DNA of 64,000 nucleotides from Rhizophagus irregularis (Eukaryota; Glomeromycota; Glomeromycetes; Glomerales; Glomeraceae). Below the pieces are notes generated by a model, which had not been told where the DNA came from, did no database searches, and was given only the letters and a program-made list of their open reading frames with translations. The stretch is from contig NC_089452.1 in NCBI RefSeq assembly GCF_026210795.1, positions 3,100,001 through 3,164,000 on the forward strand, given 5' to 3'. Shown here in pieces: positions 1,030 to 55,415 of the stretch. Positions within the stretch are counted from its first letter, which is position 1, and each line of letters begins with the position of its first letter. The translations under genes were made by a program, and so were the position numbers.

Positions 1030-2490
1030 AAAAGATAAAGATTCATACTAATCTTTATCTTTAGGTTTTCGTTCTTCAGAAGCCCACCCTAGAGCTCCAA
1101 ATGGGTCAGGTCAGGTCAGGTTATATCAGGTTGTCTGTTTGACCTGACCTGACCTGAAACCTGAAAAATTTCAGGACTATTTTTATTAAAGTATTGAAAA
1201 AAAATGGTACAAAACTTTTTTTTTTTAATATAATATTATGAAAAAAAACGTTTTTGCAACGTTTTTTATTAAAACTAGTGTTCACCTGTTGTCTACGACA
1301 ACAGTTAATATGTAATTCCAGCCAGAATTAAAAGATCTGCAACGAATTTCCTTTTTTGGAAATTTGAGCAACACAATTTTTTTAATTTCTCTGAAAAGTA
1401 ACAGAACCCAAAATTTCAGTTTTTCGCCAGAAATGAAATTGCCTTTTTTGGTCTTGTGTAACATTGGCGACGAATAGGAGTAGAGTTACACAATTCAAAT
1501 GACTTATTTATATGGTTAATCTAAACATAACGCCCACGTGATTGCAGTGTTTTTTAATATATAGATATTGAAAAAAAATATTGCAAAACGTTTTTTTTAA
1601 TATAACATTATGAAAAAAATGTTTTCGCAACGTTATTATTGAAATATCAAAAAAAAAACGTTACGAAACATTTTTTTAATATAATATTATGAAAAAACGT
1701 TTTCGCAACATTTTTTCTCGAAATATTGCGATTCAACATTTTTATATTGATTTTGTATAAAAAAAGTGAGTTGCGGTATTGCGATTCACTTTTTTATATA
1801 GATTCTATATAAAAAAAGTGAGTTGCGGTATTGCGATTCACTTTTTTATATAGATTCTATATAAAAAAAGTGAGTTGCGGTATTGCGATTCACTTTTTTA
1901 TATAGATTCTATATAAAAAAAGTGAGTTGCGGTATTGCGATTCACTTTTTTATATAAATTCTATATAAAAAAAGTGAGTTGCGGTATTGCGATTCACTTT
2001 TTTATATAAATTCTATATAAAAAAAGTGAGTTGCGGTATTGCGATTCACTTTTTTATATAAATTCTATATAAAAAAAGTGAGTTGCGGTATTGCGATTCA
2101 CTTTTTTTATATAGAATTAATATAAAAAAGTGAATCGCAATATCGCAACTCACTTTTATTATATAAAATCAATATAAAAAAGTGAATCGCAATACCACAA
2201 CTCACTTTTTTTTATATAGAATCTATATAAAAAAGTGAATCACAATACCGCAACTCACTTTTATTATATAAAATCAATATAAAAAAGTGAATCGCAATAC
2301 TGCAACTCACTTTTATTATATAGTAGAATCAATAGTTTCAGGTCAACAGGTCAATCAGGTCAGGTCAGGTTACCTGAATTTGGCTGACCTGTTCGGAGCT
2401 CTAGAACAGTTTATTAACCGTTCCTTTCTTTATTTTTTTAGATTCGGGTGGGCTTCCGAAGAACGAAAACCTAAAGATAAAGATTCGTAC
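1030..2490. mobile_element. Candidate foldback / TIR element with nested repeats
   Basis: The left arm (about 1030-1135) reads GATAAAGATTC, GGTTTTCGTTCTTC, AGAAGCCCACCC, AGAGCTCC and then tandem GGTCA. The right arm (about 2355-2490) carries the same blocks in inverted order, interrupted by about 40 bases at 2403-2445. Between the arms lie three copies of an AACGTTTT-type repeat (about 1200-1720) and the 52-bp array. No coding capacity is visible, so if mobile it would be non-autonomous. Boundaries are approximate and no target duplication was identified. Confidence 0.45.
1755..2330. repeat. 52-bp tandem array that switches orientation
   Basis: Seven direct copies begin GTGAGTTGCGGTATTGCG at 1766, 1818, 1870, 1922, 1974, 2026 and 2078, an exact 52-base step. 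Four copies in reverse complement (GTGAATCGCAATAC) follow at 2130, 2182, 2235 and 2287. Each unit is itself an imperfect palindrome (AGTGA...TCACT) flanked by TATATA. The switch point is near 2105, so the whole array can fold on itself. Confidence 0.85.
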
Positions 2491-24695: not shown

Positions 24696-27159
24696 TTAAT
24701 TACATAATAAAGAATTTACACTCATCCTTGTTGTTGAGGCAGAATCATCTCCAACCGCACTCACATGTGATGATGCTTTTCTCGGTATAGGAGAGATCAT
24801 CATGTCTTCTACTCGCCCATTATTCCGAAACGTAGGGAGAGAATTGTCCGAAGATATTTCATCATGATCATTTTGATGTGAATGAAAAGTAGCATTATCA
24901 TCATTATTGTTATGAAAACGATTTGACTGATTGGTATATGATGGAGGATCTAAAGATTTGTTTTCTATTTCGTTATAAAAAGGAATAGGAGATCTAACTG
25001 AATTAAATGCTGATGGTCGCCTTTCGAATGAAAACGGTGATTGTGATCCTGAAGGTGAACAAGTTGGAGGTGAAACAAGAGGTTCATGTCGAGATATGAT
25101 AGGCGTAATCGGATTTGGGCGTGAAACAAATGAAGAAAATGTTTCAGAAACATTACGATCTTGCGAAAAATGATCATGTGAATTGTAGGGGTGAAGAGGT
25201 TTTCTGTGCCCGAAATAAGTATGTGAAGAATGATTTGTTTCGTTATATAAAGGTGCTGGCCCGATCTCGGGAATTTGTCTTGGTGATAAAACGGGACTTA
25301 AAAGTCCTAACCTTCCTCCACCTAAACTCGAATTAGGTGAACCAATATTATTATTATTATTAATTGGAGTATGCATGGTTAACAAAGAGGGATCAATTGT
25401 AGTCGTTGGTGGTGAAGTGATTTGAGTCGGAAACCCACCAACAACTGAACTTCCCTTCATTCTTGGTTGAACGTAATTTGACCCTTCATTTAAAAAAGAA
25501 GTTCCAGATTTGATACGCTTGAAAAGTGAGACAATATACAACTTATTCCAAGTTTCTTTACGTGTTAAATCTGCGCAAAAGCCACCACCCAAATACATTC
25601 TCACTTCGTACAAATCATATGGACCTATTCTTTGTTTCAGATGCAAGACGTCTGAAATTTCAATTACTTGACCTCCTTGAGCTGGTAATTGTAAAATTTC
25701 AGGACTAATTTGTGAAAATCCTGGATCTTCGGTTGTTACCGGTTCGGATAAAGGAGACGAAAATTGATAATGATGAGTGGTTTGATTATGAAATCGATTC
25801 GCATCATCTAATAAAGATGAAATCATTTTTCGTAATTTTTCCCTATCTTGAGCATGTACATATTCATACAAAGTCTTATGAACCAATTCTGACGGATAAT
25901 AACCCATTATTCCAAGACATTCATCAGAAACTCTAGCACAAGCAATATTATCAATTGCTAAAAACATTGTAATAATAGGTGTATTGTCTTGTTGTGAATA
26001 TGCTTGTTGTCTAGGTGTGAATTTTGGTGATTTTATGTATGGTGTTGAATGTTGACGATTATGATTGTTATGATGATGTAAATGATGCCTGGAAGATGAG
26101 TGTTGTGTCGTCTGAATAAATGTAGAGGAATTTGGAGGTTGATCGCTTTGTTGATGTAGATTTGGGTTTGGATTAGTAGTAGTCGGAGGAAGAAATTGTG
26201 GATTTTGAACCCAAGTCTTTGCATCTGCAGTTGCGTGAGTATTGTATGGATGAGGTTTCTTATCCTTCAACTTTGGTCTTCCGCGCTTTTTATGTTTAAT
26301 ATCAATACAAGTATCCACTTTTCCAAGGGCCACACATCTTTTGCAAGGTCGCGACACTAAAAAAAAATTATTTTTTTGTTAATAAAGAAAAACATATATA
26401 TACGATGTATAATTATGCAAGATGTAAAAACGTGTCATGATTAATGGTTTTTTTTTAAAAAAAAGAATTTATATGAAATGTAAACTTTAGAAAAGTAAAA
26501 ATGAATTTAATCTCCGATTCAACAAAAAAAAAAAGAAAATTTTCCGATACACAAACAACCCGAGTGATTGGATATATGATGAATGTACATAATTTATGTA
26601 AGGGGTCGAAACTTAATTAGGGAAATAAGGAATTTAATTAAACTAATTATGAATCTTTAATAATATCGACAAAAGAAGTATTTTCTGCAAGCGAATTTCT
26701 TTCGTTTTTTTTTTACATAATTATTATTATTAATTTTTTTTTTTTTGAAAAAAAAAATAATAACATATGGAAAAAGAAAGAAAAAAAATACGTAAACAGT
26801 AAAATTTAATTCAACAACTTACCGTCACATGCAAGGTGTGCTCGCTTACAATTGACACAAGCGCTTGGTACATGAGTTTTATTTGTTCGTTTCATTGTTC
26901 CAGAGCCTCCCTCTTCAACGCCTAAACCCGAATTCAACATACCCATACTGCTACTTTGTTTTGAAGTACTTGTATCGGCACTAGTTCTTACTCTGGGATT
27001 ATTAGAGTATGAAGAGTAATGATGTTCAGAAGGAGTATATAGTCTTTGACGGTCATTTGAATCATAATGGAATGTAGGCGATTGTTGAGACGCTGTTATA
27101 TGCGTATCACTTAGTGAATAAGGTGATAGAGAAGGATACGCTCTTCGTGGTGTTCCCAT
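24696..27159 (-). CDS. Zn2Cys6-PAS fungal transcription factor
   Basis: Two exons, 27159-26823 and 26356-24696, are joined across a 466-bp GT-AG intron to give 665 residues. The intron splits the zinc cluster. Exon 1 ends with CVNCKRAHLACD and exon 2 begins VSRPCKRCVALGKVDTC, together the CX2CX6CX5CX2CX8C binuclear cluster (about residues 100-127). A basic KKRGRPK segment follows. A PAS-like domain lies at about 240-300 (FLAIDNIACARVSDECLGIMG). Cluster followed by PAS is the architecture of the Ert1/AcuK/AcuM regulators of gluconeogenesis, and the ERT1/RDS2 group is my best guess. The rest is low-complexity (His, Asn, Ser, Pro). It probably acts in the nucleus as a sequence-specific regulator; target genes cannot be read from the sequence. 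Confidence 0.85.
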
Positions 27160-30690: not shown

Positions 30691-34253
<3,563 letters not shown>

Positions 34254-34418
34254 TTTTATAGCGAATTCAGGATTCAAAGAATTAGAAGTTATCCAAATTT
34301 CGAAACGCGAAATTCAAAATGGATTATAATTGCACGTGGATAATTGACTTTTATGTCATCATCATCATCATTAGCATATTTATAGAGCTACATTGTCCCA
34401 CCTGTCTCACAACTCAAA
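34254..34418. promoter_or_regulatory. Probable bidirectional promoter, MCM3 / J-protein
   Basis: Only 165 bases separate the two start codons, which point away from each other, so both promoters must lie here or overlap the genes. The stretch includes GCACGTGG (a CACGTG E-box core, near 34332) and a CATCATCATCATC run (34358-34370). The regulatory role is inferred from geometry. Confidence 0.6.
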
Positions 34419-35715
34419 ATGACACTTAATCCACAGTATGAATATTATAAGGCCCTGGGAATCACTCCTACTGCCTCACCACAAGAGATAAAAAAAGCTT
34501 ATAAGAAATTAGCTTTAAAATATCACCCCGACAAACATAAACAACGTCTTGATGATGATACAAACATAGCTTCTATTAATAATCAATTTATTTTGATAAA
34601 TGAAGCTTATTCAGTTCTTGCACATGAAGAATCTAGGGCTCGGTACGATTCTCTGTGTTCTACAGGAAAAGCTTCAGATCAAGAATTATCTGGCGATTGC
34701 GGTGAAATTCAATTAATGCACAAACTATTCCGCGAAATAATGACTAAGAGAGAACAGATAAGTGAACTCTCTGAATCATTTGAAAGCCTTGCTATATCAA
34801 TGGGCTGGATAATACAAACTCATAAAAATGAAGATAAGCTGTTTAATGCATTTGAAAAAGCAATATCATTAATTGAATCCAATATTCTTGAAGACGCGGA
34901 TATTGGCGAACAAGCTTCATCGGATATAAGCCTTTCCTATTCTGAGCTTTTAACACATTATCTTTCCGATGATGATGTTGTATTAGTTGTTGAAAATCCT
35001 CAATGGATTATGATTGAAAAAGAACCATTAATTCATCATCATCAATTATCGGAATTTGCTGAATTTCACATGTTGTTGATAAAATCGGTTAAAATTATTA
35101 TTTCTCCATTGATGATGGCTTGTACTTATGGGACCTGGGGTGAACAAAGAATTAACTTATTACAAAGATTTACGTCAATAATGACACGTTATATACAATA
35201 TCTTGAATTTATTCAAAAAAAAACAACAGATGAAGGATTTGAATCCATTGTTGAAAAGGTTTTGTGATTTTTATTATAGAAATCTATTTTATTTATTATT
35301 TATTTATTTTATCTTACCAAAATCCAGATGAGTACCCAGAATATCCAATCTCAGGTTATAAATTTATCGAAACATCCAATTTTATCCAAGATTTCCAATG
35401 GTCGATTTGGGCTAAACGTTTATCCTCTTGTTAATCTTGCAATTTTGCTCGGACCATCCTTTGTTGGCCAATCAATTTATTGGTTTGTTATTTTATTCTT
35501 TAAATTATTATTATTTTCAATATAATTATTTTTTTTATTAAATTTATTTTTTGTTTTTTTTTAATATTAGGTCAATTCTGGCTGTTATCCTTTTGAGTAT
35601 GGTATCTGTGCATCGCAATGAAGAAGACTTAGAAAAATTTCAGCAATTTTTGAATATTTTTGATGAAATTGTCACTCTTTTGGATAATATAACAAGTAAT
35701 ATCGATATTGACTGA
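34419..35715 (+). CDS. J-domain (Hsp40) co-chaperone with hydrophobic C-terminus
   Basis: Three exons, 34419-35258, 35328-35482 and 35571-35715, give 379 residues. The J domain spans about residues 7-79, with helix II ending LALKY, the HPD tripeptide at 36-38, and helices III-IV (INEAYSVLAHEESRARYDSL). This domain stimulates ATP hydrolysis by Hsp70 partners. The remainder (80-279) is mainly helical without Gly/Phe or zinc-finger regions, so it is a class C J-protein. Exons 2-3 encode a hydrophobic stretch (about residues 305-345: VYPLVNLAILLGPSFVGQS, then SILAVILLSMVSV), which suggests membrane association. I do not recognise the exact subfamily. It converges with the GYF gene, with ends 269 bases apart. 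Confidence 0.85.
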
Positions 35716-35984: not shown

Positions 35985-38900
35985 TTAATGCTTTTTTTTA
36001 CCTTTTTTTGTAGTTACAACTTTGAAAGCGCCTGCACTATTTATAGAATGATCATCCTTTGTGTTACTGTTACCCGTTCCCGTATCTTTACCTGACTTCC
36101 CTTCCGTATTAGTATTCAAAAAACTATTTAATGGTAAACCGCTAGCATCTGCCTTACGCCTCTTAATAAATTCATCTGCAAATCTTCGACCATCTAAAGT
36201 GGGAGAATTAGCATAAACCGATTCTTGTATAATTTCAATAGTTGCAGGAGGAGGATCAAGCGGAAATGTGAGCAACATTTGAATAAAATCCTCAACTATA
36301 AAGAATTTGGTAAGAAATTAAAATAAATCAAAAAATAATAAGGGATAAAAATAAAATAAAATAAATTTACCATTCACATCATTTAACCCACGTAAAGCCT
36401 GACGACACCATTTTAAAAATTCTTCAGAAGGGGGTCGGGGTGTAGAATGCTCATTAGAACTGTTAGCATTAATTGCGCCGCTGTTTGCAGAAGTCTTTGA
36501 TAAACTTAAGCTGACGGGAGTTGATCTATTAGTATTTTTTAAATGTTCTGATGGTTTATTTGATTGAGTTTGTGATCTAAATTATAAAGTAAAATTAAAT
36601 AAATACATACATAAATAAATAAATAAATAAAATTTAATAAAATTAAATAAAGAAAAATATATATATACCTTAAGCCATTTATACCCTTGTGCGAATCCAT
36701 ATCCCAAACCACAGTAGAATCTTTTCCGGTAGGCTTTGTTGATAATACATTTACAGTAGTACCAATGTTACTTTGAGGAGATATTGCAGTAGTCGAACGA
36801 TTATTTGATTTGCTAGCAACAGTTGTCCAAGCGGCGTTCATAGATGTAGATCCTATTTTCTATAATAACAATAATAATGAATGAATGTAGCTTTATTGCT
36901 AAGCTTTATTGCTAAACAAAAAAAATTTGTTACAAATGTATATATTATACAAAGAACACTAGATTAACACTATTTTACATGTACCTTTGTTCCAGGGCCA
37001 CCGCTTCCCGTGGCTACGGTATCCGCATAACGTTTACCCATACTATTTGTAACAGAAGTGCTAGTTCCAGAATTAGCACCAAGCAAAACTTGTTGTTGCA
37101 TTTCACGAATTTTATTACGTCTTTTCATTGCTTCTTCTTCTTCTTTTTGAATTTCCCTAAGTGTTTTTTTGGGGGCAGAATTGTTTGATTGCCACGCTGG
37201 TGTAGTTACAACAGGAGAAGTAGAAAGTGAAGACGAATTTGATGTACTAGACGAATTTTGACCAATGATACCCCAAGAAGAATTTGAGGGTGTTGATTCT
37301 TCTTTAGTAACCATAACAGTAGCCTGAGCAGTGACCGTAGACACCGCTTTACGTTCAGCAGCTTTTCGAGCTTCCATCTCTTGAATTTCTCGCAGTGAAG
37401 GAGTTTTGTGAGCAGTGTGGTCTTCATCTTTTGCCCATGGTGCAGGTGAAGAAGGAGTGATAGAATTATTATTTCCCCATGCTGCGCTGTTAATTTTCTG
37501 TGGCTGGGGTGCTTTGGCAATTGGTTGATTGGAAGTTTGTTGAACAGAGGTAGCGAATTTTTCTTTTTCTTGTTGCTGTTTTTTGCGTCGTTCTTCTTCG
37601 GCCTGAATTTCGCGTAACGAAGGTTTTGTACGATACAATTCTTCTTTCTGAACAAAACGAGATGTTTCATCGACAATATTCTTTGATGCAGATGATTCAT
37701 CTTTTCCTTCATTAATTACTTTTTCATCAATTTTTTTTGAATGTGTTTCATCATCTGCTATTGCCATAGACTTAACCATCTCATTAACTTTACTATCAAG
37801 TGACGAATCTTGAATATTTCCACTCATCATTTCATATTGTCTTTCATTACGACGTGATGATTGCTGTAATCCTTCTTTCCTCAAACCAAAATATCCAATT
37901 TCATCTGACTGAGTAGCACGTGAAGGAGTAACTCCAATACCGGGTCCCCATGGCGATGATGGAGTTGGTTCAGTAGTAGTTGTGGCAGGCCAACCTGTGG
38001 CTCTCGTGAACGGAGAAGTTGGCGCATTTGATATAGGGGCTGATACCGGTCCAGACATTCCTACATAACTTTGGTGTTGTTGCCTAATGAAGGCGTCTGG
38101 GTAAGAATTTTGATTCTGTTGATTTTGTTGTAATTGTCTTTGTTGCAGCACCAAATATTGTTGTTGACGATCGATCTGTGAAGATAACACTCGTTGATGA
38201 TCCAAATAGGTTTGAGGCGGTGAAACATTAAAGGTAGCGGAATTATTATTAAATAAAGGTGGAGAATTAGGGGCTTGTATACGAGGAGACAGACTTTCAT
38301 TATTAGATGTAAAACTATCAGTTTGTCCCCATGTATTATTTGTAGAATTTAGATCTCCCCATCCCCCATCATTTCGCCCAAAAACACTGCCGAATTGGTA
38401 TCGATCAAATGGAGTGTTTGGTACAGAAGCAGTTCCGCCAAAAGGATTAAATCTTTGTTGATCCAAAAACAACTGTGCTGTACTAGGAGAATTAGGACCG
38501 ACCCAAGACCTTTGGAATGGATCATTAACCAGGCGTGATGAATTATTAGGCATAGAGATAGTTAAAGAAGGTCTTGAACCAGGTATCTGTGCTGAAAAAG
38601 GCCTTTCATCATCACCTGTCTTTCGTATTAAGACACCTAAAGGTTCAAACGTAGTATCCTCAACTCTTTTAACTAAAAGACTATGAACAAAAAATCCGCC
38701 TTTGTACCATTCATTCATTTCTTGACTACTAAAGGGTCCTAAATAATTTAATTAAGTAATTGTTAAATGACATATTATTAGTATAACACAGTTAAAAAAA
38801 AATATTAGTGTACCTTGAATGTTACCACTTGGATCACGGTACATCCATTTATATTGTTCAGACGTTACTTTTCTTGATTCAACATTTATTCCCGCACCAG

Positions 38901-42123: not shown

Positions 42124-44240
<2,117 letters not shown>

Positions 44241-44526: not shown

Positions 44527-45593
44527 TTAATGAAATATATCAGGATTAGATGAATCAGTATAACTAGTGAAATCATTGAAATCACTAAAATCATTAGGCG
44601 AAGGAGATCTTTGAATATTTTGTGCAGCGGGAGAAATACTTTGTTTTTTTCTAACAGAAGCAGCAGAAGGTGGAGGCGGTAAAAGAGGAACAGTTTTTGT
44701 ACTTTCATCAGTATTAATACTTGAAATACTATCTATATGCCGCGTATTATGCTATTATGAAAATAATGAATTTTAGAATGAAATTTTTAAAGATTTTGCA
44801 AATCATATATGTCATGTAATTATGTTCTTACATTGCCAATCTTTAATCTAATTGTTTGACCTTCTTTCAAACTATAGTCTCTTTTTGGTTGCTCTAAGGC
44901 TTTTTTAGAATATTCAGCTGACTCCTTTTCTATTTTGAGATGTCTATTATACACAAAAAAGTGTCAATTATCTAATAGTAGAGGTATAGAATTATTAGTA
45001 AATTTAAGAAGATGATTACTTGACATGATCTTGTAAAGCTACTTGAAAATCAAAAGCTTCCGAACGTTCTTGAAATCCCATGCCTATAAATGCATGTCGA
45101 CCATCATCTTCAATACGCAATACAAAATATCTGCTTGAATCACGTACAGGTTCAACTGTATTAGTATCAGGATCATATAAACACTGTGCGAATAGTTCTC
45201 CTGATGTAGTTGTTAAAATGTGTTAAATATAAGTTAAAAGAAGACTCAAAAAATAAACTTATTTTACCAGTTGTCCCATCTTCTAACTTTATAAAACACT
45301 TTTCTCCTACGGAAATAACTCTTAAACGTCCTTTCCATAAAAAAGCCTCCATATCACCCCATTCTGATGCTCTGAATTACAAATTTTTATTAAATGTGGT
45401 TTTTTTAAAAAATTATTATATAACATAAGCAATTACTTGTATTCTCGACTAGATGTTCTCGGCGGAATTTTATATACTAAGATCACAATATTTCTTGTTA
45501 AAAATCTTGTCTTTATTAGAAAAAAAAACTAATATAAAACATACCATAACATTCACGAATTACTAACAGTACGCTTTCGTACTCGTCTGACAT
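44527..45593 (-). CDS. NECAP-like adaptin-ear-binding endocytic protein
   Basis: Six exons give 236 residues: 45593-45545, 45476-45437, 45371-45268, 45200-45020, 44943-44832, 44751-44527. The N-terminal PH-like NECAP domain is recognisable from [19 protein letters not shown], then [38 protein letters not shown] and [14 protein letters not shown]. The C-terminus has a proline-rich stretch and repeated Asp-Phe motifs (NDFSDFNDF), of the kind that contact AP-2 appendages. In animals NECAPs bind AP-2 and regulate clathrin-coated vesicle formation; the same role is inferred here. It is divergent from the MAPKKK across 164 bases. Confidence 0.92.
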
Positions 45594-45757
45594 CACAATG
45601 TCCAAAAAATATTGCCGGAAAACAAAAATAACGAGTTTATAGTTATCACGCAGAAAATCATGTGATAAATTGAATATCATTATCAGTACCGACTAGTTAG
45701 TTTTCCTATTGGTAATTTCATAGAATTTTTGTTTGCTTATTATTTGTTGCGACTCCA
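45594..45757. promoter_or_regulatory. Probable bidirectional promoter, NECAP / MAPKKK
   Basis: Only 164 bases separate two divergent start codons, so this gap must contain or overlap both core promoters. I recognise no specific binding site with confidence. The role is inferred from geometry. Confidence 0.55.
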
Positions 45758-48700
45758 ATGAAAAATACAGTACGTTTTAACACTCCTTACGAAGACGAAG
45801 AGCCAAGAAGGGATGAAGGACGCGAGAGCTTTAATGGATATGCGATCTCGGGAGATTCAATCGTTAATCATAGGAACGGTGTTGGATATGGCAGTTCACA
45901 ACGACCTTTTCAAAATCTAATCTTTGTTTTACATGGGCTCGATGAGTATCAAAAGCAAAGACTGGAAAGCAAAATATTTCAACAGGGCGGTAGTGTCTCG
46001 TCAATGATCAGTGAACGGGTAAAATTTTATTTTCGAATTCTTTTTTCGTATTCGTCCAAACATTTTTGTTGATTTACTGAAAATTTCACTTTGTGTGTTA
46101 ATATAAAGGAAATATTTATATTAAATTTTTTAAATTTAGACGACTTATCTTGTAACAACGCAAGAGTACCATGATAGAAATACTGAAGAAATTAACGAAT
46201 TGGTGAAATCTAACAATGTACAAATCATGTTCGATAATTGGATTTATGAAGCGGCAAATGCGGCAAATAATATGCATGAGGACATCGGGTAAATAAAATG
46301 TTTAATAACCCTTTTATATCGTCGCTTTAAGTAATAATTAAAAATTGTAAGAATTATATTTTCAATAGTAATCCAAATAATCACCGTTATAATCGCCGTG
46401 ACAGAGATGATGATAACGACTATGATGATGATGATGATAACGAACATGGCCATGAGAGACCTATAAATCCTATAAATCGAAAATCAAAATCTTATAGTGA
46501 TAGAACTAAAGATGAAAAGGGCCTAAACCAAAAACATGACTGGGATCATTATTCATATTTTCCAAATGAATATGGTAATAGGAAACGCCACTCTAGAGAT
46601 GGATTTGCAAGTAGTCGGAGGAGTAATGATGTTTTTGATTGGGATCGAGCATCTAACGATTCAGATGAATCTGATGGTGTAGTTAACGATTTTCCAAATT
46701 CTGAAGATGCCGATACTTCTACCACAAAACCTGGATTGACTCATGAAATGCAAAAGGAAAGAATGGAATGGCAAAGTTTTTTGGCATCCGTACTTAATGG
46801 CGACGTTATTAAATCGGAGAAACGGCGTATGTCAGGTTCAAATCCAAGGCAAGCGGCTAGTATAAGTTATCAAATTTGGTTGGGAATCCGTGCTATAACG
46901 CGTGGACGTACACTCGCGGAAGAGAAGTTGATTGTTGAGGAGAGTCGACAGATAATCGATGTTTTACTCAAAGAAGTTATAGAATTTGAGGTAAAACCAG
47001 GTGATGTGCCTGCAATTGATCAGGTAGCCGAGATACTTCAGAGAGTTGATACATGTGAGAATCTTTATCATTCACGCAAAGCAATGATGCTTGATAAACC
47101 TTTATATAAATCAGAAGAATTTCAATATAGTTTGGATGCTCTTAATTCATGGTTAACGATAACACGTAGTTTGCAAACACAATTAAAAATTTTACAAAAT
47201 TGGACAGGAAGTGGAATTTTGGAAATTACTCGACCGAAGGATGCCCCAACCGATGCAGAAAATCCTTCTTTTCTTGAACGAATATTGAAAGAGAATAGTT
47301 TGAAACAAACTTTTGAAAACCGAACTCTATCGACTTTAGATTCGCTTTTGCTAAAAGCGAAACGTGTAATGATTGATAATGCTGCTGCTTTTGCTAAAAT
47401 GAAATTACCTCCTTATATCAACGAATTACAGCAACTTCTTAATTTTCCAACAAAACTTATGGAAGAATGTATGAAATTGTTACTTACGTATTCTAATCGT
47501 CTGTCCGATCCTACTATGTTGATGGTTCAGCAGATGATGGAGAATTTTCGAATTTCTCTTTCATTAGCATGTCAAATCAAACATCAATATCTCGAGCTTA
47601 TCAAACCTGCAGATGGTTGGGATATTCCTCCATGCATCGATGAAAATTATAATACAGTTTTACTAGACTCGTTGAAATTCTACTTTAAGTTACTACAGTG
47701 GAAGCTCAAAATTGGATACAAGACTGTATCATTTAAGGAAGCAGAAATTTTAGAAAATGAATGGTCTTTTTTAAGTGGCATATGTCGTCATATAGTGGGA
47801 GGTGATTCTGAAACTGCAGTACAATTTTGGTGAGTATGTAACTTTTTGTATTTGAAATTTTTTTATTACACATTTACATATTTATTTTTTTGGAATATAA
47901 TGTATAAAATTTGCTTAATGTTAGGAACTTTTTTATACATATATACATGGGAAAAATTTAATTTAATAAAAACGAATCGGTTTATTAGTTAATACACAAT
48001 TTTCACACGATTTTAACAATTTTATAGTTCTCTAACGAATAAGTTACTTCAGAATGTCATGACTTATTATGATAAGGAGCTTGGACTAGGACCTACGAAG
48101 TCTGATCCTTTAAAATTTTATAATAAACTCTTGGAAAGTGTACGTTTAAGATTGAGAAGATTGATTCGGTTTACGAAGTAGGTACATTATTTAATTTATT
48201 TAAATATACTCTTTATTAACTTCATCGCTTTTATGTAGATTTCTTTTCGGTGAACTCGAAAATGCTGCAGAATATTTTATTGATGATAATAATTATCAAG
48301 CTTTTATCAAAGGATTAGAGCATACCTCACATGTTCTTGTGTACCCTGATACTTATGAGTCTGATGGTGTGTGCTTCATTGTTGAACGAACGCTTCATAA
48401 CCGACCTCAACAAATACAAAAACTACTTACTTCTGTTCTTACGTCCGAAAAAAGACAAGATAATTATGATGAAGAATTAATAGGAACGGAATATGTCCTT
48501 ATTCTATCACCCAGGGTACAATTTGAATGGAATGGTCTTAATATGGTTGAGTCGATGGAACAACTTAATATTGAACTCAAAACTCACCGTATCAGGCTAG
48601 TTTCTGGTGCATATCCAAGACTACAAGCATGCAAACAACGTTTTCGCGAAGCAGTCGATGGTTGTGGTATTGAAGTTTTGTTAGAAACGCGAGCAAACGT

Positions 48701-50717
48701 ACCTTGCGTTAATCGCGAAATGACTAAAATTAAAAAAACTGTTTTCAAGCTTGCTAATAAAATAATTGATAGTGTTGCATTAATTAAAGAAAAAACAAAG
48801 AATGAAGAATGTCAAGATTTGATTGAAAACTGTTTTAGTTTTGCAACTGAAATAGGTCAACGTTGTTTGCGTTATATGCATCGAGATGCTGTGCGTGCGC
48901 AATTAAATGTTAAATTAACCCGAATGGCGATAGATTGGGTTAGTTTTATATGTGATGATTGTGTTCCCACAGATCGCAAAACGTTTAGATGGGCGGTAAT
49001 TGCTTTAGAATTTGCTATGGCGACAAATCGTGGTAACAATATTCTAGGTTTAACAGAAAATGAATTTGCCATGTTGCGTAGCAAAGTAGGGATGTGTATG
49101 AGGTTACTTATATCTCATGTAGATATTATGGGTGCGCGATCATCTCATGAAGAGCAACAACGGCAAGAGACAACTGGTCATCAGAGTGATCTTGTATTAC
49201 AGTCTCTTCTTCAACTCCAAAATAATTATGGTAATGCTTATAGCGGCAAGGATTCTTTAGTTATGCGAGATGAATGGATGGCTAAGTTAAATGAATTAGA
49301 AGCTAGACGCTACGAAAAGGAACAAGATCAACGTCTTGTTGGTAAAGTTCTTGACGATAATCAACCTGAAAATCGACCTTTAGTCTTTTTAGCATCATCA
49401 AGTTCAAATATTTCTTTACGATGGCAACAAGGCAAATTTATAGGAGGTGGTGCTTTTGGATCAGTTTATTTGGCTGTCAATTTAGATACTGGAGATCTTA
49501 TGGCTGTCAAGGAAATACGATTTCAGGATCCATCTTCACTTACAACGCTTTATAGGTCTGTCAAGGAAGAAATGTCAGTTATGGAAATGCTTGATCATCC
49601 AAATATTGTTTCATATTACGGTATTGAGGTACATCGGGACAAAGTATATATTTTCATGGAATATTGTCAGGGTGGTAGTCTTGCTTCTCAGTTAGAACAT
49701 GGACGTATCGAAGATGAAGGAGTAATTCAATATTATGTTTATCAGATGTTGCATGGGTTAGGTTACTTACATGAAAACGATATAGTTCATAGAGATATAA
49801 AACCTGATAGTAAGTAGTTATTTTAACAATTAAACTTTTTTATTCTTACCCCTAACATCACATATTATATAAAGATATACTTTTAGATCATAATGGAGTG
49901 ATAAAATTTGTGGACTTTGGAGCAGCAAAAATTCTTGCAAAAAATCAGAAGACAATGGGCCGAACTACAATGGCACAAAAATCTAAAACCAATGTTCATA
50001 GTCTAACTGGTACTCCAATGTATATGGTTGGTTGAAATAAATATACTTCTAAAATAAATTTTATATTAAATAATACTAACAAATTTGTCTAAAATTTAGG
50101 CACCGGAAATAATAACCGGAGGGGAGAAGGGTCGTAAAGGATCAATGGATATATGGTCATTGGGATGTTGTGTATTGGAAATGGCCACTGGTAGACGTCC
50201 TTGGTCAAATTTAGATAACGAATGGGCTGTTATGTATCATGTAGTTACAGGTCATCCACCTTTACCGGATCCCTCACAGTTATCGGAATTAGGAATGGAT
50301 TTCTTAAAAATGTGTTTTATTAGATCAGCACAACAACGTCCTTCCGCTAAAGAATTACTGAAGCATCCATGGATCGAAGATGCAGTTAAAGGAGTTTCTG
50401 CGAATATGGATTCAAGCGAGTGGACTCATAATGGTAGTATGTTGAGTACAAGCTCAAACTCCGCAACTAATACAACACCTAACACTAGTAGTACTCCCAC
50501 AACTCCTTTCAGCAATATATCAATGCGAACAATGGAGTCTGCAATGCGGACTTTAGAACTCGTGAGTGATGAAGATTTTAGACCTTCATCCCCGCCATTA
50601 TCGAATGGTAAAGAACATGTAGAAGATGATTCTCAAAAGATATTTATGATCAAAGATGGGTTACCATCTAGTACTTCAGTAGTATCTGTTGAAAGCGAAG
50701 ACGGTGTATTAGTTTAG
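45758..50717 (+). CDS. Ssk2/Wak1-type MAPKKK with N-terminal BRCT-like domain
   Basis: Seven exons give 1449 residues: 45758-46018, 46140-46288, 46369-47829, 48028-48177, 48239-49809, 49887-50026, 50100-50717. Residues about 52-130 look like a BRCT domain: LIFVLHGLDEYQKQRLE, the Gly pair QQGGSV, TTYLVTTQEY and VQIMFDNWIYEA with the conserved Trp. A charged Asp/Arg/His-rich linker follows (about 137-260), then a long helical region as in Ssk2/Ssk22/Wak1. The C-terminal kinase domain (about 1068-1330) has GGGAFGSVY (1076-1084), AVKEI with K1098, HRDIKPDN (D1193), VDFGAAKI (D1207), GTPMYMAPE and DIWSLGC. DFGAAK is characteristic of the Ssk2 group, which activates the Hog1-type stress MAPK cascade. 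Last is a Ser/Thr-rich tail. The kinase looks active. The BRCT-like domain is the unusual part. Confidence 0.92.
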
Positions 50718-51193: not shown

Positions 51194-52781
51194 ATGGATA
51201 CAAAAAGAAACATGCTACTTTTTCTTGTTTTGATAATAGTATATTCGATAAGTGTGAATCTGGTTATACCGGAACTTGGTAATCTAATTTTGATTAACGT
51301 GTTGATTGCTTTGGTTTATGGACTGGTCTATAAACTTAAGGTTCATTTTTCAAAACACTATGTAATAATAATAAAGAATCCTTTTACACACAAAAAATTT
51401 TCTTTATTAACTTCAGTAAGTAAAAAAAACTATATATATTATATATATTGGACATACTGGGTATTTTATTAAAATTTTTTTTGAATGTTAGACATATACC
51501 ACTTATATAACATCATCCATCATTGAAGAAGAAGAACAACCACAACCACCACAAATTTCACCACAACCACCTACTTTAATTGCCAGGATGCAAGAAGAAA
51601 ATCGACAATTATTAATAAAGTTAGCTGGTCTTGAAAATGAAAAAATGATGAGTAATAGTGATAACGAAGATGATAGTAAGCGTGTACGTAATTTAAGACG
51701 TAAAGGTAATAAATACAAATGTAGTACTGGAACATTAAGTAGCAGACATGCGTCAAGCGTTTTTTCAGCATCAACTTCAGCATATGAAACAACCCTTACG
51801 GATATAACACATTATTCTTGTGATTTGGAAGAAATGAAACCAAAAATAATAAATAATAATTGGGAAGTTATTGATGAAAGAGCCGAATCACAAAATAAAC
51901 ATCTTTATCTGTCAAAAATTAGGAATTCGGTTGAAGAGCTAGACGTACGCGATATATTTAATATGGATCAAATTAATTCAGGAGCATTGGGCAAAGTTTA
52001 TAAGTGCACACATCGAAAGTCACAACAAATTTTAGCAATAAAATTAATAAGTTTATCCTCCTCAAAACTTCTTAACGTAACATATTCCGAAATCTTGGCT
52101 TGTCGCCTATTACGTCACCAAAACATAATTCAAAATTATAAACAATATATTTACGAAGATTACTCTTCAACAAACGATTATGATTCAGAATTACCTAATT
52201 ATACACTATGTTTATTAATGGAATATTGTGAACAGGGGTCTCTGTGGGATATAAGGCACAAACGACAATCAAAAAGATTAACTGAACATGAAATTGCATT
52301 CGTATGTAGAGAAGTTTTAAAAGGTTTAGAATACATTCATTCAATGGGAATAATACATAGAGATATTAAAGCTCAGAATATTTTACTATCAAACGACGGT
52401 ATAGTTAAGATAGCTGATTTTGGTTCTTCTTCTTTACATTCAAGAGCTTCATTAAAACTTGGAACTTTATATTGGATGGCGCCTGAAGTATTACATGACC
52501 AAATTTATAATAGTAAAGTTGATATATGGTCTTTAGGTATTATGGCAATAGAATTAATTGATGGTCGTCCTCCATGGTTTCCTTTGGGCCAAAGAAAGGT
52601 CGTAGAGTTAATAAGAACTGTAGGAACTCCTCCAATTCCATTAAATATTTCTTTAGATTTTGAAAATTTCTTGAGAGATTGTCTTAAAGTAAATCCTGTT
52701 GAAAGACCATCTGCTACTGATTTACTATCTCATCATTTTATAAAAGAATTCTCTCTCGCAATTGAAAAATTACAATTGTAA
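51194..52781 (+). CDS. STE20-group kinase with two N-terminal hydrophobic segments
   Basis: Two exons, 51194-51415 and 51492-52781, give 503 residues. Residues about 7-46 form two hydrophobic stretches (MLLFLVLIIVYSISVNLVI and LILINVLIALVYGLVY), read as a membrane hairpin or signal anchor. An acidic/proline segment (EEEEQPQPPQISPQPP), a short coiled region and a Ser/Thr-rich linker follow. The kinase domain (about 229-495) has a glycine loop INSGALGKV in which the first Gly is Asn, AIKLI with K258, HRDIKAQN (D365), DFGSSS (383-385), GTLYWMAPEV and DIWSLGIMAIEL. The GTxYWMAPEV and HRDIKxxN patterns place it in the STE20 (PAK/GCK) group. Other catalytic residues are present, so it is probably active. 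It lies 476 bases downstream of the MAPKKK, same strand. The STE20 subfamily is unresolved. Confidence 0.87.
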
Positions 52782-53196: not shown

Positions 53197-55415
53197 TTAA
53201 CTTTTGTAACTTTTCTTTCTATTTTCTAGCTCGAACTCTCGAATTTTTTCCTTTATTATTTGTTCAACTTTCGCTATTTCTTCTGGTGTTGGTGAAGTTG
53301 ATGATTCTCGGTCATTTTCATCATAACTATAAATGCTATAATTATATGGTGGTGGTCGTGGGACTGAACTACTAGTTTTTGCCCACTTTACACTTCTTTC
53401 ATGATCATCTTCTAACACTCGTTTTTTAACCCTTAACTTGATTTTTGTGGAAACAGAGTTATCTTTTCGTGATGTTCCGCTATTATCATCATGATTCCTT
53501 CTACACGATTTTATATTAACCTTTTGGTCTTCTGATTCTTCTTCATCGAAATTCATATTGCCTTGGTTTATAATCCTATTTATCCGTCTACTTAATCTTT
53601 TCGTTAATCTTATAGGATCAGATACCTCATTTGGAATATTGTCTTTTATTAATTGCCGTTCTTCCATTGTTGATTCACTATTTGATTCGAGTTTACCAGT
53701 AAAACCAAGTAAAAACAGTGCAAGTTCCACTATGCCTTTCAACTCCCATTGAGACAAAGATGATGGATCCTCTAGAAAATTTTTATCATTAGTAATAATA
53801 CCTTAAAAGCGAAATTTGTAACTATCCTTTTATCACCTTTAAGTATCTTGTTATAGTGCTTTCCAGCATACCAACTCATTTTCTCAAAATATGGAAATCG
53901 ATATTTTATTGGAACATTAGTACGTTTCTCAATGTCATAAATAGCCAATTGTATTCCAATATTGAACCCATGCAAAAAATTGCCTCCAATAACTATCGAA
54001 TCATCTGGTGTATATACTGCATGAATCCATCCGGTAGGAATTATCCTAACGTGAATAAATAATTTGTCAAAATTATTAGACATTAAGGAAAATCCTTTGC
54101 TAGTAAATAAATAGAAATTCTTACATAGTATTACCAGCAACTAATTTCACTTCAAAACAATCTTTGACCAAATCGGCAAAAAAGGTCATGGATTGCTCTG
54201 GTGATGATATCCATCTTGAATACTTCTTTAAATTAGATGGTGTTGGCGGAACAAAATAAAATACTTTTGATCCCCTTATAACATGATAGAAAACAGATGA
54301 TCCACCAAAATCAATATGGAAATCGGTAAAGCTATCCTTAATACTCATAAGGCAGTAAAGCTGAACTTTAGGATATTCGACCATTTTTTTATTTGGCCAC
54401 ATGTTCTCGACCCAATCGAGCTCTCTATTTAATTTAAAAAAATATCGATAAATTGGTTACGAAAACAAAATTTTATTATTATTTTAGCATACCTTACAAT
54501 GCGTGGTCGCAATATCGAATCGCCGAAGGGTGTTTCGCTTACTTCCAGGCTTATTACATTTAAGACCTGATCCCGTTTTGGTCCGTCGAAATAAGTAGCC
54601 CATTTATACATATTCCAATCAGGAATTTCTTGTTGGGTAGAAACATCTTTAAGAAAGATAAATATATTTAATAAGTGCGCCGCAGAAATGACGTTGTACA
54701 ACTAGAAGCTACATTACCAATTACATCAACAGGAGTATCATAACCTGATCAAACAATAAATTTTATATTAGTTTGTCTTAAATTAGGGTAATCATCTAAT
54801 GAACATACCAACAGTTTCGGCAATTTCGCTAACTGTGATGTCCTTATGAGGCATTTTCATATCAAGGCCATCTGGATTTTCGATAATGATAGGCTCTTCA
54901 AGACCAAACCAACGCACCCAATCTATTGTCAACTGTTCACCACGTATTTTACGGAATTTGTGCTTTTGAAATATTTTTGAATCGAGAACACGTTTCCATT
55001 TATAAGGATTGCCAGTTAAACCATTTTCTAAATCAGCATAATTGACTTTGGAATGTTCGCGTTTTGACTTTCTTATTCCCACTTTATCTTTAATTAAAAA
55101 AAAAATTACAAAGCATTAAATTGAGATAAATTTCGTGAACGAATTATAATATCAATTGATTATATATCATTTCACAACGAATTTTCACTTACAGACACTA
55201 GGACCATGAGTCCGTGTACAGTTTGGACAATGATATTCATCAATTCTATCACATTCCTCGGAAGGAAGTTTGAGACAACTTGCATGACACCAGACATTGC
55301 ATATATCGCATTTTATCCAAGTCTCAGTATTTTCCTGGAACCAAAGTGGAACCAAACGTTGTTTATTAGCACAGAGCGGACATTTTTCGCCCGGAGTATC
55401 CATAACCTGAGACAT
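53197..55415 (-). CDS. PHD-JmjC histone demethylase, JHDM1/KDM2 type
   Basis: Seven exons give 588 residues: 55415-55193, 55087-54809, 54744-54718, 54646-54493, 54424-54125, 54045-53837, 53771-53197. The N-terminal PHD finger (about 12-66) shows CPLC, IKCDICNVWCHASCL and YHCPNC. Conserved JHDM1 blocks follow: KHKFRKIRGEQLTIDWVRWF and RELDWVENMWP. The JmjC core has Fe(II) ligands H264, D266 (FHIDFGGSS) and H336 (IIPTGWIHAVYTPDDS), and likely 2-oxoglutarate contacts T261 and K281. PHD plus this JmjC type removes methyl groups from H3K36 in yeast Jhd1 and animal KDM2, the expected reaction here, in the nucleus. The C-terminus is charged and of low complexity. The join at 53837/53771 is chosen because the alternative intron would be only about 32 bases. 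Confidence 0.93.

What the first reader, a model, noticed from the sequence alone, without database searches (positions are those of the whole stretch)
45758..46700. BRCT-like domain fused to an Ssk2-type stress MAPKKK
Exons 1-2 encode a fold signature of BRCT (hydrophobic strand, Gly-Gly turn, TTYLV strand, conserved Trp). They are spliced in phase to a 1461-base exon leading into an otherwise ordinary Ssk2/Wak1-type kinase. BRCT domains read phosphorylated proteins, mostly in DNA-damage and replication pathways. Ssk2, Ssk22 and Wak1 are not known to me to carry one. If real, it would connect a phospho-peptide or damage-linked input to a Hog1-type cascade.
Basis: partly seen in the sequence, partly recalled or inferred. 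Interest (0 to 1): 0.7.

Follow-up and report, generated by a model that had tools for sequence, protein, structure and literature searches.

The report
Stress-signalling kinase carrying a BRCT domain
A probable fungal stress-signalling kinase gene encodes, at its front end, a protein-binding domain best known from DNA repair proteins; the domain looks real and joined to the kinase, but it seems to lack the residues such domains use to grip phosphates, so its job is more likely ordinary docking than damage reading.

Summary
Residues 48-123 match Pfam BRCT (PF00533) above its cut-off of 21.3: 35.1 bits, E 1.6e-8, isolated; 30 bits in the whole protein. Exon 1 alone scores 19.1 bits and exon 2 alone has no BRCT match. 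Downstream is an Ssk2/MEKK4-type MAPKKK: MEKK4_N 54.1 bits (cut-off 24.9) and a full kinase domain. Exon 3 looks coding from its start yet has no Met for 126 codons, and a NECAP-type gene starts divergently 164 bases upstream, so one fused gene is the simplest model.

ECT2's phosphate positions T153 and K195 fall on H59 and on I105 or E104; no alignment tried put Lys at the second, though this rests on weak pairwise similarity. A phosphate-independent docking module on an acidic tether fits better than a damage-mark reader. No eukaryote genome collection was available, so presence in other fungi is untested. Literature listings and passages showed no such fusion. There is no RNA evidence.

The parts
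45758..46018 (+). Exon 1: N-terminal 47 residues and the first half of the BRCT domain (protein residues 1-87)
   Evidence: open, coding score 49.3 bits, BRCT half-match 19.1 bits
46019..46139 (+). Intron 1 (121 nt, GTAAAA...TAG), splits the BRCT domain
   Evidence: GC 0.19, negative coding score in all frames
46140..46288 (+). Exon 2: second half of the BRCT domain (residues 88-137)
45899..46247 (+). BRCT domain (Pfam PF00533, residues 48-123), interrupted by intron 1. H59 (45932-45934) faces ECT2 T153; E104 (46188-46190) or I105 (46191-46193) faces K195
   Evidence: coordinates computed from the exon table
46289..46368 (+). Intron 2 (80 nt, GTAAAT...TAG); if retained, TAA at 46290-46292 would end a BRCT-only protein of 137 residues
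46369..47829 (+). Exon 3: acidic linker (residues 138-263, 24 Asp of 126) followed by the Ssk2/MEKK4-type N-terminal region; first in-frame Met at 46748
48028..48177 (+). Exon 4: regulatory region
48239..49809 (+). Exon 5: rest of the regulatory region and start of the kinase domain
49875..50026 (+). Exon 6: kinase domain (DFG region)
50100..50717 (+). Exon 7: end of the kinase domain and Ser/Thr-rich tail, stop codon at 50715-50717
49425..50375 (+). Protein kinase domain (PF00069, residues 1070-1340), spanning exons 5-7
   Evidence: 231 bits, profile 2-263 of 263; coordinates computed from the exon table
45594..45757 (.). 164-base gap between the divergent NECAP-type gene (ATG at 45593-45591, - strand) and the kinase start codon

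Best explanation
One gene encodes a 1453-residue Ssk2/MEKK4-type MAPKKK with a single N-terminal BRCT domain, joined by an acidic, probably flexible linker to the usual regulatory region and C-terminal kinase. Shown here, at sequence level: domain, linker, regulatory region, kinase and in-phase open reading frame. Inferred: the core works as in other Ssk2-type kinases (an activator such as an Ssk1-type response regulator binds the N-terminal region and frees the kinase), while the BRCT domain docks the kinase to a partner, or to a second copy of itself, without needing phosphate. It would thus steer location or dimerisation rather than read DNA-damage marks.
For: BRCT above the Pfam cut-off, and above it only when exons 1 and 2 are joined. 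MEKK4_N and full kinase domain. Held-out coding scores for exon 1, exon 2 and the 5' part of exon 3, with 0 of 5000 shuffles reaching each. No Met for 126 codons in exon 3. Intron 2 is 80 nt at 19% GC, little room for a gene end plus a promoter. ECT2 T153 faces H59 in 18 of 18 alignments; K195 faces I105 or E104 in 16 of 18 and Lys in 0 of 18; the RFC1 alignment (18.3 bits) also puts a Thr at H59. Phosphate-independent pairing of BRCT domains is on record for XRCC1 with DNA ligase III (PMC10386641, passages). Ssk2 autoinhibition and its relief by Ssk1: PMC3644883 and PMC4578879 (passages).
Against: No RNA evidence for either junction. Introns 1 and 2 show no YTRAY branch-like motif within 40 bases of the acceptor, whereas the other four introns do. 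No relative was found, and no eukaryote collection could be searched. The phosphate-residue test rests on weak similarity to ECT2: that stretch scored 5.5 bits, and the K195 partner varies among four residues. Some single BRCT domains do bind phosphopeptides (TopBP1 BRCT5; [quoted passage not shown] PMC10386641 passages). No structure of the domain was predicted. Docking and self-association are untested.
Confidence: 0.55

Rival explanations
1. The BRCT domain reads phosphorylated partners (for example at damaged chromatin) and feeds a damage or cell-cycle signal into a Hog1-type cascade.
For: BRCT domain present. Single BRCT domains can bind phosphopeptides (TopBP1 BRCT5; TDT, REV1, DNA ligase III; PMC10386641 passages). 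The animal relative MEKK4 is switched on by GADD45 proteins (PMC4578879 passage).
Against: The positions facing ECT2 T153 and K195 are H59 and, in 18 of 18 alignments, not Lys. There is no second BRCT repeat in the Pfam scan.
Confidence: 0.15
2. Two overlapping products: exons 1-2 with intron 2 retained make a 137-residue BRCT-only protein, and the spliced form makes the kinase; or exons 1-2 are a separate small gene and the kinase starts at Met264.
For: TAA lies directly at the intron 2 donor (46290-46292). Intron 2 has no branch-like motif near its acceptor.
Against: Residues 138-263 score as coding (78.5 bits, 0 of 5000 shuffles) yet contain no Met. Only 80 bases separate exons 2 and 3.
Confidence: 0.12
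3. The BRCT domain is a leftover of a recent exon capture with no function of its own; the kinase behaves as ordinary Ssk2.
For: The domain is near the extreme N-terminus, apart from the conserved core, and the known phosphate residues seem to be missing.
Against: The domain still scores well above cut-off and the exons keep coding bias.
Confidence: 0.13

Closest known systems
Ssk2/Ssk22, Wak1/Win1 (fungal stress MAPKKKs) and animal MEKK4/MTK1
   Same: Long N-terminal regulatory region matching MEKK4_N and a C-terminal MAPKKK kinase domain
   Different: An N-terminal BRCT domain. The passages seen do not mention one in these kinases, but only passages were read and no such kinase sequence was examined here
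ECT2 BRCT domains
   Same: Best PDB sequence match of the domain (E 0.0073); ECT2 is a signalling protein (a RhoGEF, listing) with BRCT domains
   Different: ECT2 has several BRCT domains (passage) and T153/K195; here one domain, with H59 and I105 or E104 at those positions
XRCC1 and DNA ligase III BRCT domains
   Same: XRCC1 is among the PDB matches (E 0.16 and weaker); the pair associate without phosphate (PMC10386641 passage)
   Different: Those are DNA repair proteins; no repair-enzyme domain shows in the Pfam scan here
Fungal Rap1 N-terminal BRCT
   Same: N-terminal BRCT in a fungal protein, function unsettled (PMC10386641 passage)
   Different: Rap1 is a transcriptional regulator (passage), not a kinase

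Membership tests
BRCT domain (Pfam PF00533) | Profile score above the curated cut-off (21.3 bits) | tested here: met
   31.1, 30 and 35.1 bits
BRCT domain (Pfam PF00533) | Gly-Gly turn and conserved Trp near the C-terminal helix | tested here: met
   G77-G78 align with GG of ECT2 and W121 with its W (W121 in 18 of 18 alignments)
BRCT domain (Pfam PF00533) | Three-dimensional BRCT fold | not testable with these tools
Phosphopeptide-binding BRCT | Ser/Thr at the ECT2 T153 position | tested here: not met
   H59 (18 of 18 alignments; residue named in PMC2680334, one passage)
Phosphopeptide-binding BRCT | Lys at the ECT2 K195 position | tested here: not met
   I105 in 12, E104 in 4, E96 in 1 and R100 in 1 of 18 alignments, Lys in none; HMMER gives E104 beside a gap in a 5.5-bit stretch. 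A structure is needed to be sure
Ssk2/MEKK4-type MAPKKK | MEKK4 N-terminal regulatory region (PF19431) | tested here: met
   54.1 bits, cut-off 24.9, best stretch residues 480-965
Ssk2/MEKK4-type MAPKKK | Complete, catalytically equipped kinase domain | tested here: met
   PF00069 profile positions 2-263 of 263; GGGAFG, K in AVKEI, HRDIKPDN, DFG, APE in the sequence; best PDB match MAP3K2, E 1.3e-53
Ssk2/MEKK4-type MAPKKK | Activation by an Ssk1-type response regulator and signalling to Pbs2/Hog1 | not testable with these tools
   needs bench work

The most novel reading that the evidence does not exclude
A lineage of fungi has wired its stress MAPKKK to a new class of input through a BRCT domain, so that chromatin, replication or cell-cycle proteins directly recruit and activate the Hog1-type cascade by a phosphate-independent BRCT contact.
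Probability: 0.15. Interest if true: 0.65.

Novelty: new variant of a known kind. Interest (0 to 1): 0.45.

Why it matters
Ssk2-type kinases are an entry point of the fungal stress cascade, and how different inputs reach them is still partly open: PMC11706498 (passage) speaks of unknown osmotic-stress regulators of Ssk2 in Candida albicans. A built-in BRCT domain would be a ready-made docking site for an input or location not yet considered, and could be tested by deleting one small domain.

Tried and rejected
Relatives: viral contigs were scanned with the kinase domain (3 stretches matched a pattern, none a relative) and with the BRCT exons (no pattern match); genome contigs, prokaryotes only, with part of the regulatory region (30 stretches matched a pattern, none a relative). 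The window's own genome is not held. These nulls say nothing about fungi. PDB search of the regulatory region: 0 matches up to E 1. Separate-gene model: judged unlikely. No call names the species; a fungal origin is inferred from the Ssk2-type kinase and gene content.

Literature searches for a BRCT/Ssk2-type fusion; for Rhizophagus with Ssk2; for BRCT chemistry and Ssk2 regulation. One search held 1 paper and held 2 (3 listings, 2 distinct papers); both were read at passages: PMC7181643 has BRCT only in a reference title, PMC12930229 only for mre11. One search did not require BRCT; 20 of its 25 papers were listed, 2 of the 20 contain 'BRCT domain' (PMC8399174, PMC8131943) and neither was opened; PMC4177888 from that list was read at passages and has BRCT once, in a reference. 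The 5 papers were seen as listings only; of the 4 papers only PMC7181643 was opened. One search held 0 papers. The library holds only open-licence papers, so none of this shows that the fusion is unpublished.

Full report
What is there. The + strand from 45758 to 50717 holds a seven-exon gene (45758-46018, 46140-46288, 46369-47829, 48028-48177, 48239-49809, 49875-50026, 50100-50717); all six introns are GT...AG, 61-198 nt, and the joined frame of 1453 codons runs open to one stop.

The domain. Pfam BRCT (PF00533) matches residues 48-123 with 31.1 bits in the N-terminal 624 residues, 30 bits in the whole protein and 35.1 bits (E 1.6e-8) in the isolated 90-residue segment, against a curated cut-off of 21.3. 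Eight shuffles and the reversal of that segment gave 0 of 9 BRCT matches. Exon 1 alone gives 19.1 bits, below cut-off, and exon 2 alone gives no BRCT match, so the score passes the cut-off only after intron 1 is removed. That supports the 46018/46140 splice independently of the reading frame. Against PDB chains, the 16 distinct sequences listed up to E 10 are all named as BRCT-bearing proteins, although the best E-value is only 0.0073 (ECT2).

The kinase. The full protein matches MEKK4_N (54.1 bits, cut-off 24.9, best stretch 480-965) and nearly the whole Pkinase profile (231 bits, residues 1070-1340, profile 2-263 of 263). The catalytic motifs are intact by inspection, and the closest solved kinase by sequence is MAP3K2 (E 1.3e-53). 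I recall that the conserved part of Ssk2-type kinases begins near the EWQ motif (residues 270-272 here), preceded by an acidic stretch; no call tests that.

Is it one gene? A codon model trained on other window exons, with exon 1, exon 2 and the first 374 coding bases of exon 3 held out, scored these at 49.3, 23.6 and 78.5 bits in the predicted frame; 0 of 5000 mononucleotide shuffles reached each value, while introns 1-3 and the upstream gap scored negative in the three forward frames. The training set did include later exons of the same gene. Exon 3 has no in-frame Met until 46748, 126 codons in, although those codons look coding. Upstream, a gene whose hand-joined exons match PF07933 (179.5 bits), the family I recall as that of NECAP, begins at 45593 on the - strand, 164 bases from the kinase start, so a shared promoter there could serve exon 1. 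Against this, introns 1 and 2 are the only two of the six without a YTRAY motif within 40 bases of the acceptor, and retention of intron 2 would give a BRCT-only protein, since TAA follows at 46290-46292.

Does it read phosphate? PMC2680334 (one passage seen) speaks of phosphate-coordinating residues of the ECT2 BRCT and uses a T153A/K195M double mutant; that these two are the coordinating residues is my reading of that passage together with recall. In the alignment the matching Thr and Lys of the ECT2 chain, 42 residues apart as 153 and 195 are, face H59 and E104. That stretch scored only 5.5 bits, so I repeated the alignment under 18 settings (three matrices, six gap costs each): T153 faced H59 in 18 of 18, and K195 faced I105 in 12, E104 in 4, E96 in 1 and R100 in 1, Lys in none. 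The better-scoring RFC1 alignment (18.3 bits) also puts a Thr opposite H59. So the domain is BRCT by profile, while the known phosphate-reading feature is tested and not met, with the Lys position less certain than the Thr. Phosphate-independent pairing as in XRCC1 with DNA ligase III (PMC10386641 passages) is the closer model, though the same review reports phosphopeptide binding by some single BRCT domains.

How it probably works. Fungal Ssk2/Ssk22 are held off by an N-terminal autoinhibitory region until Ssk1 binds (PMC3644883; PMC4578879; passages). The matching region is present here. The BRCT domain hangs from it by 126 residues with 24 Asp, 15 Asn, 13 Ser and 13 Arg, which suggests a flexible tether. 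My best reading, marked as inference, is a docking or self-association module. A damage input is not excluded: MEKK4 itself answers to GADD45 proteins, but nothing in the sequence favours it.

Novelty. Six searches combining BRCT with Ssk2, MAPKKK, MEKK4, Hog1, MAP kinase kinase kinase or Glomeromycotina (one search did not require BRCT) turned up no account of a BRCT-bearing Ssk2 in the listings or the passages read; most listed papers were not opened. A study of the MAPK cascade proteins of the Mucoromycota fungus Blakeslea trispora, with domains from InterProScan, has 0 occurrences of BRCT (passages; its figure was not visible). Since fungal genomes could not be searched, the fusion could be anything from a single-species oddity to a common, merely unremarked architecture. 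I file it as a new variant of a known kind with moderate interest.

Noticed in passing
window 51194-52781 (+): Directly downstream lies a second kinase gene: a first exon with a hydrophobic, probably membrane-spanning N-terminus (51194-51415) joins in phase to a kinase whose best PDB matches are STE20-group kinases (STK3, PAK1). A possibly membrane-anchored STE20-type kinase beside a MAPKKK.
   Followed up: partly
window 45016-45593 (-): Divergent gene whose hand-joined exons match PF07933 (NECAP type by recall), 179.5 bits over 125 residues; shares a 164-base upstream gap with the kinase gene; its 3' end was not worked out.
   Followed up: partly
window 53775-54456 (-): Pieces of a JmjC-type protein: Jumonji helical domain (PF17811, 49.2 bits) and JmjC (20.2 bits, below its cut-off of 24).
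   Followed up: no
window 1724-2323: Tandem array of a 52-base unit, 11.5 copies, 92% matches; by eye the unit contains an AT-rich inverted repeat.
   Followed up: no
window 33062-33457 (-), 24699-26378 (-), 42564-42959 (-), 36973-38751 (-), 34386-35264 (+): Above-cut-off matches to MCM_OB, PAS_3, AAA, GYF and DnaJ families, in that order, in other open frames of the window.
   Followed up: no
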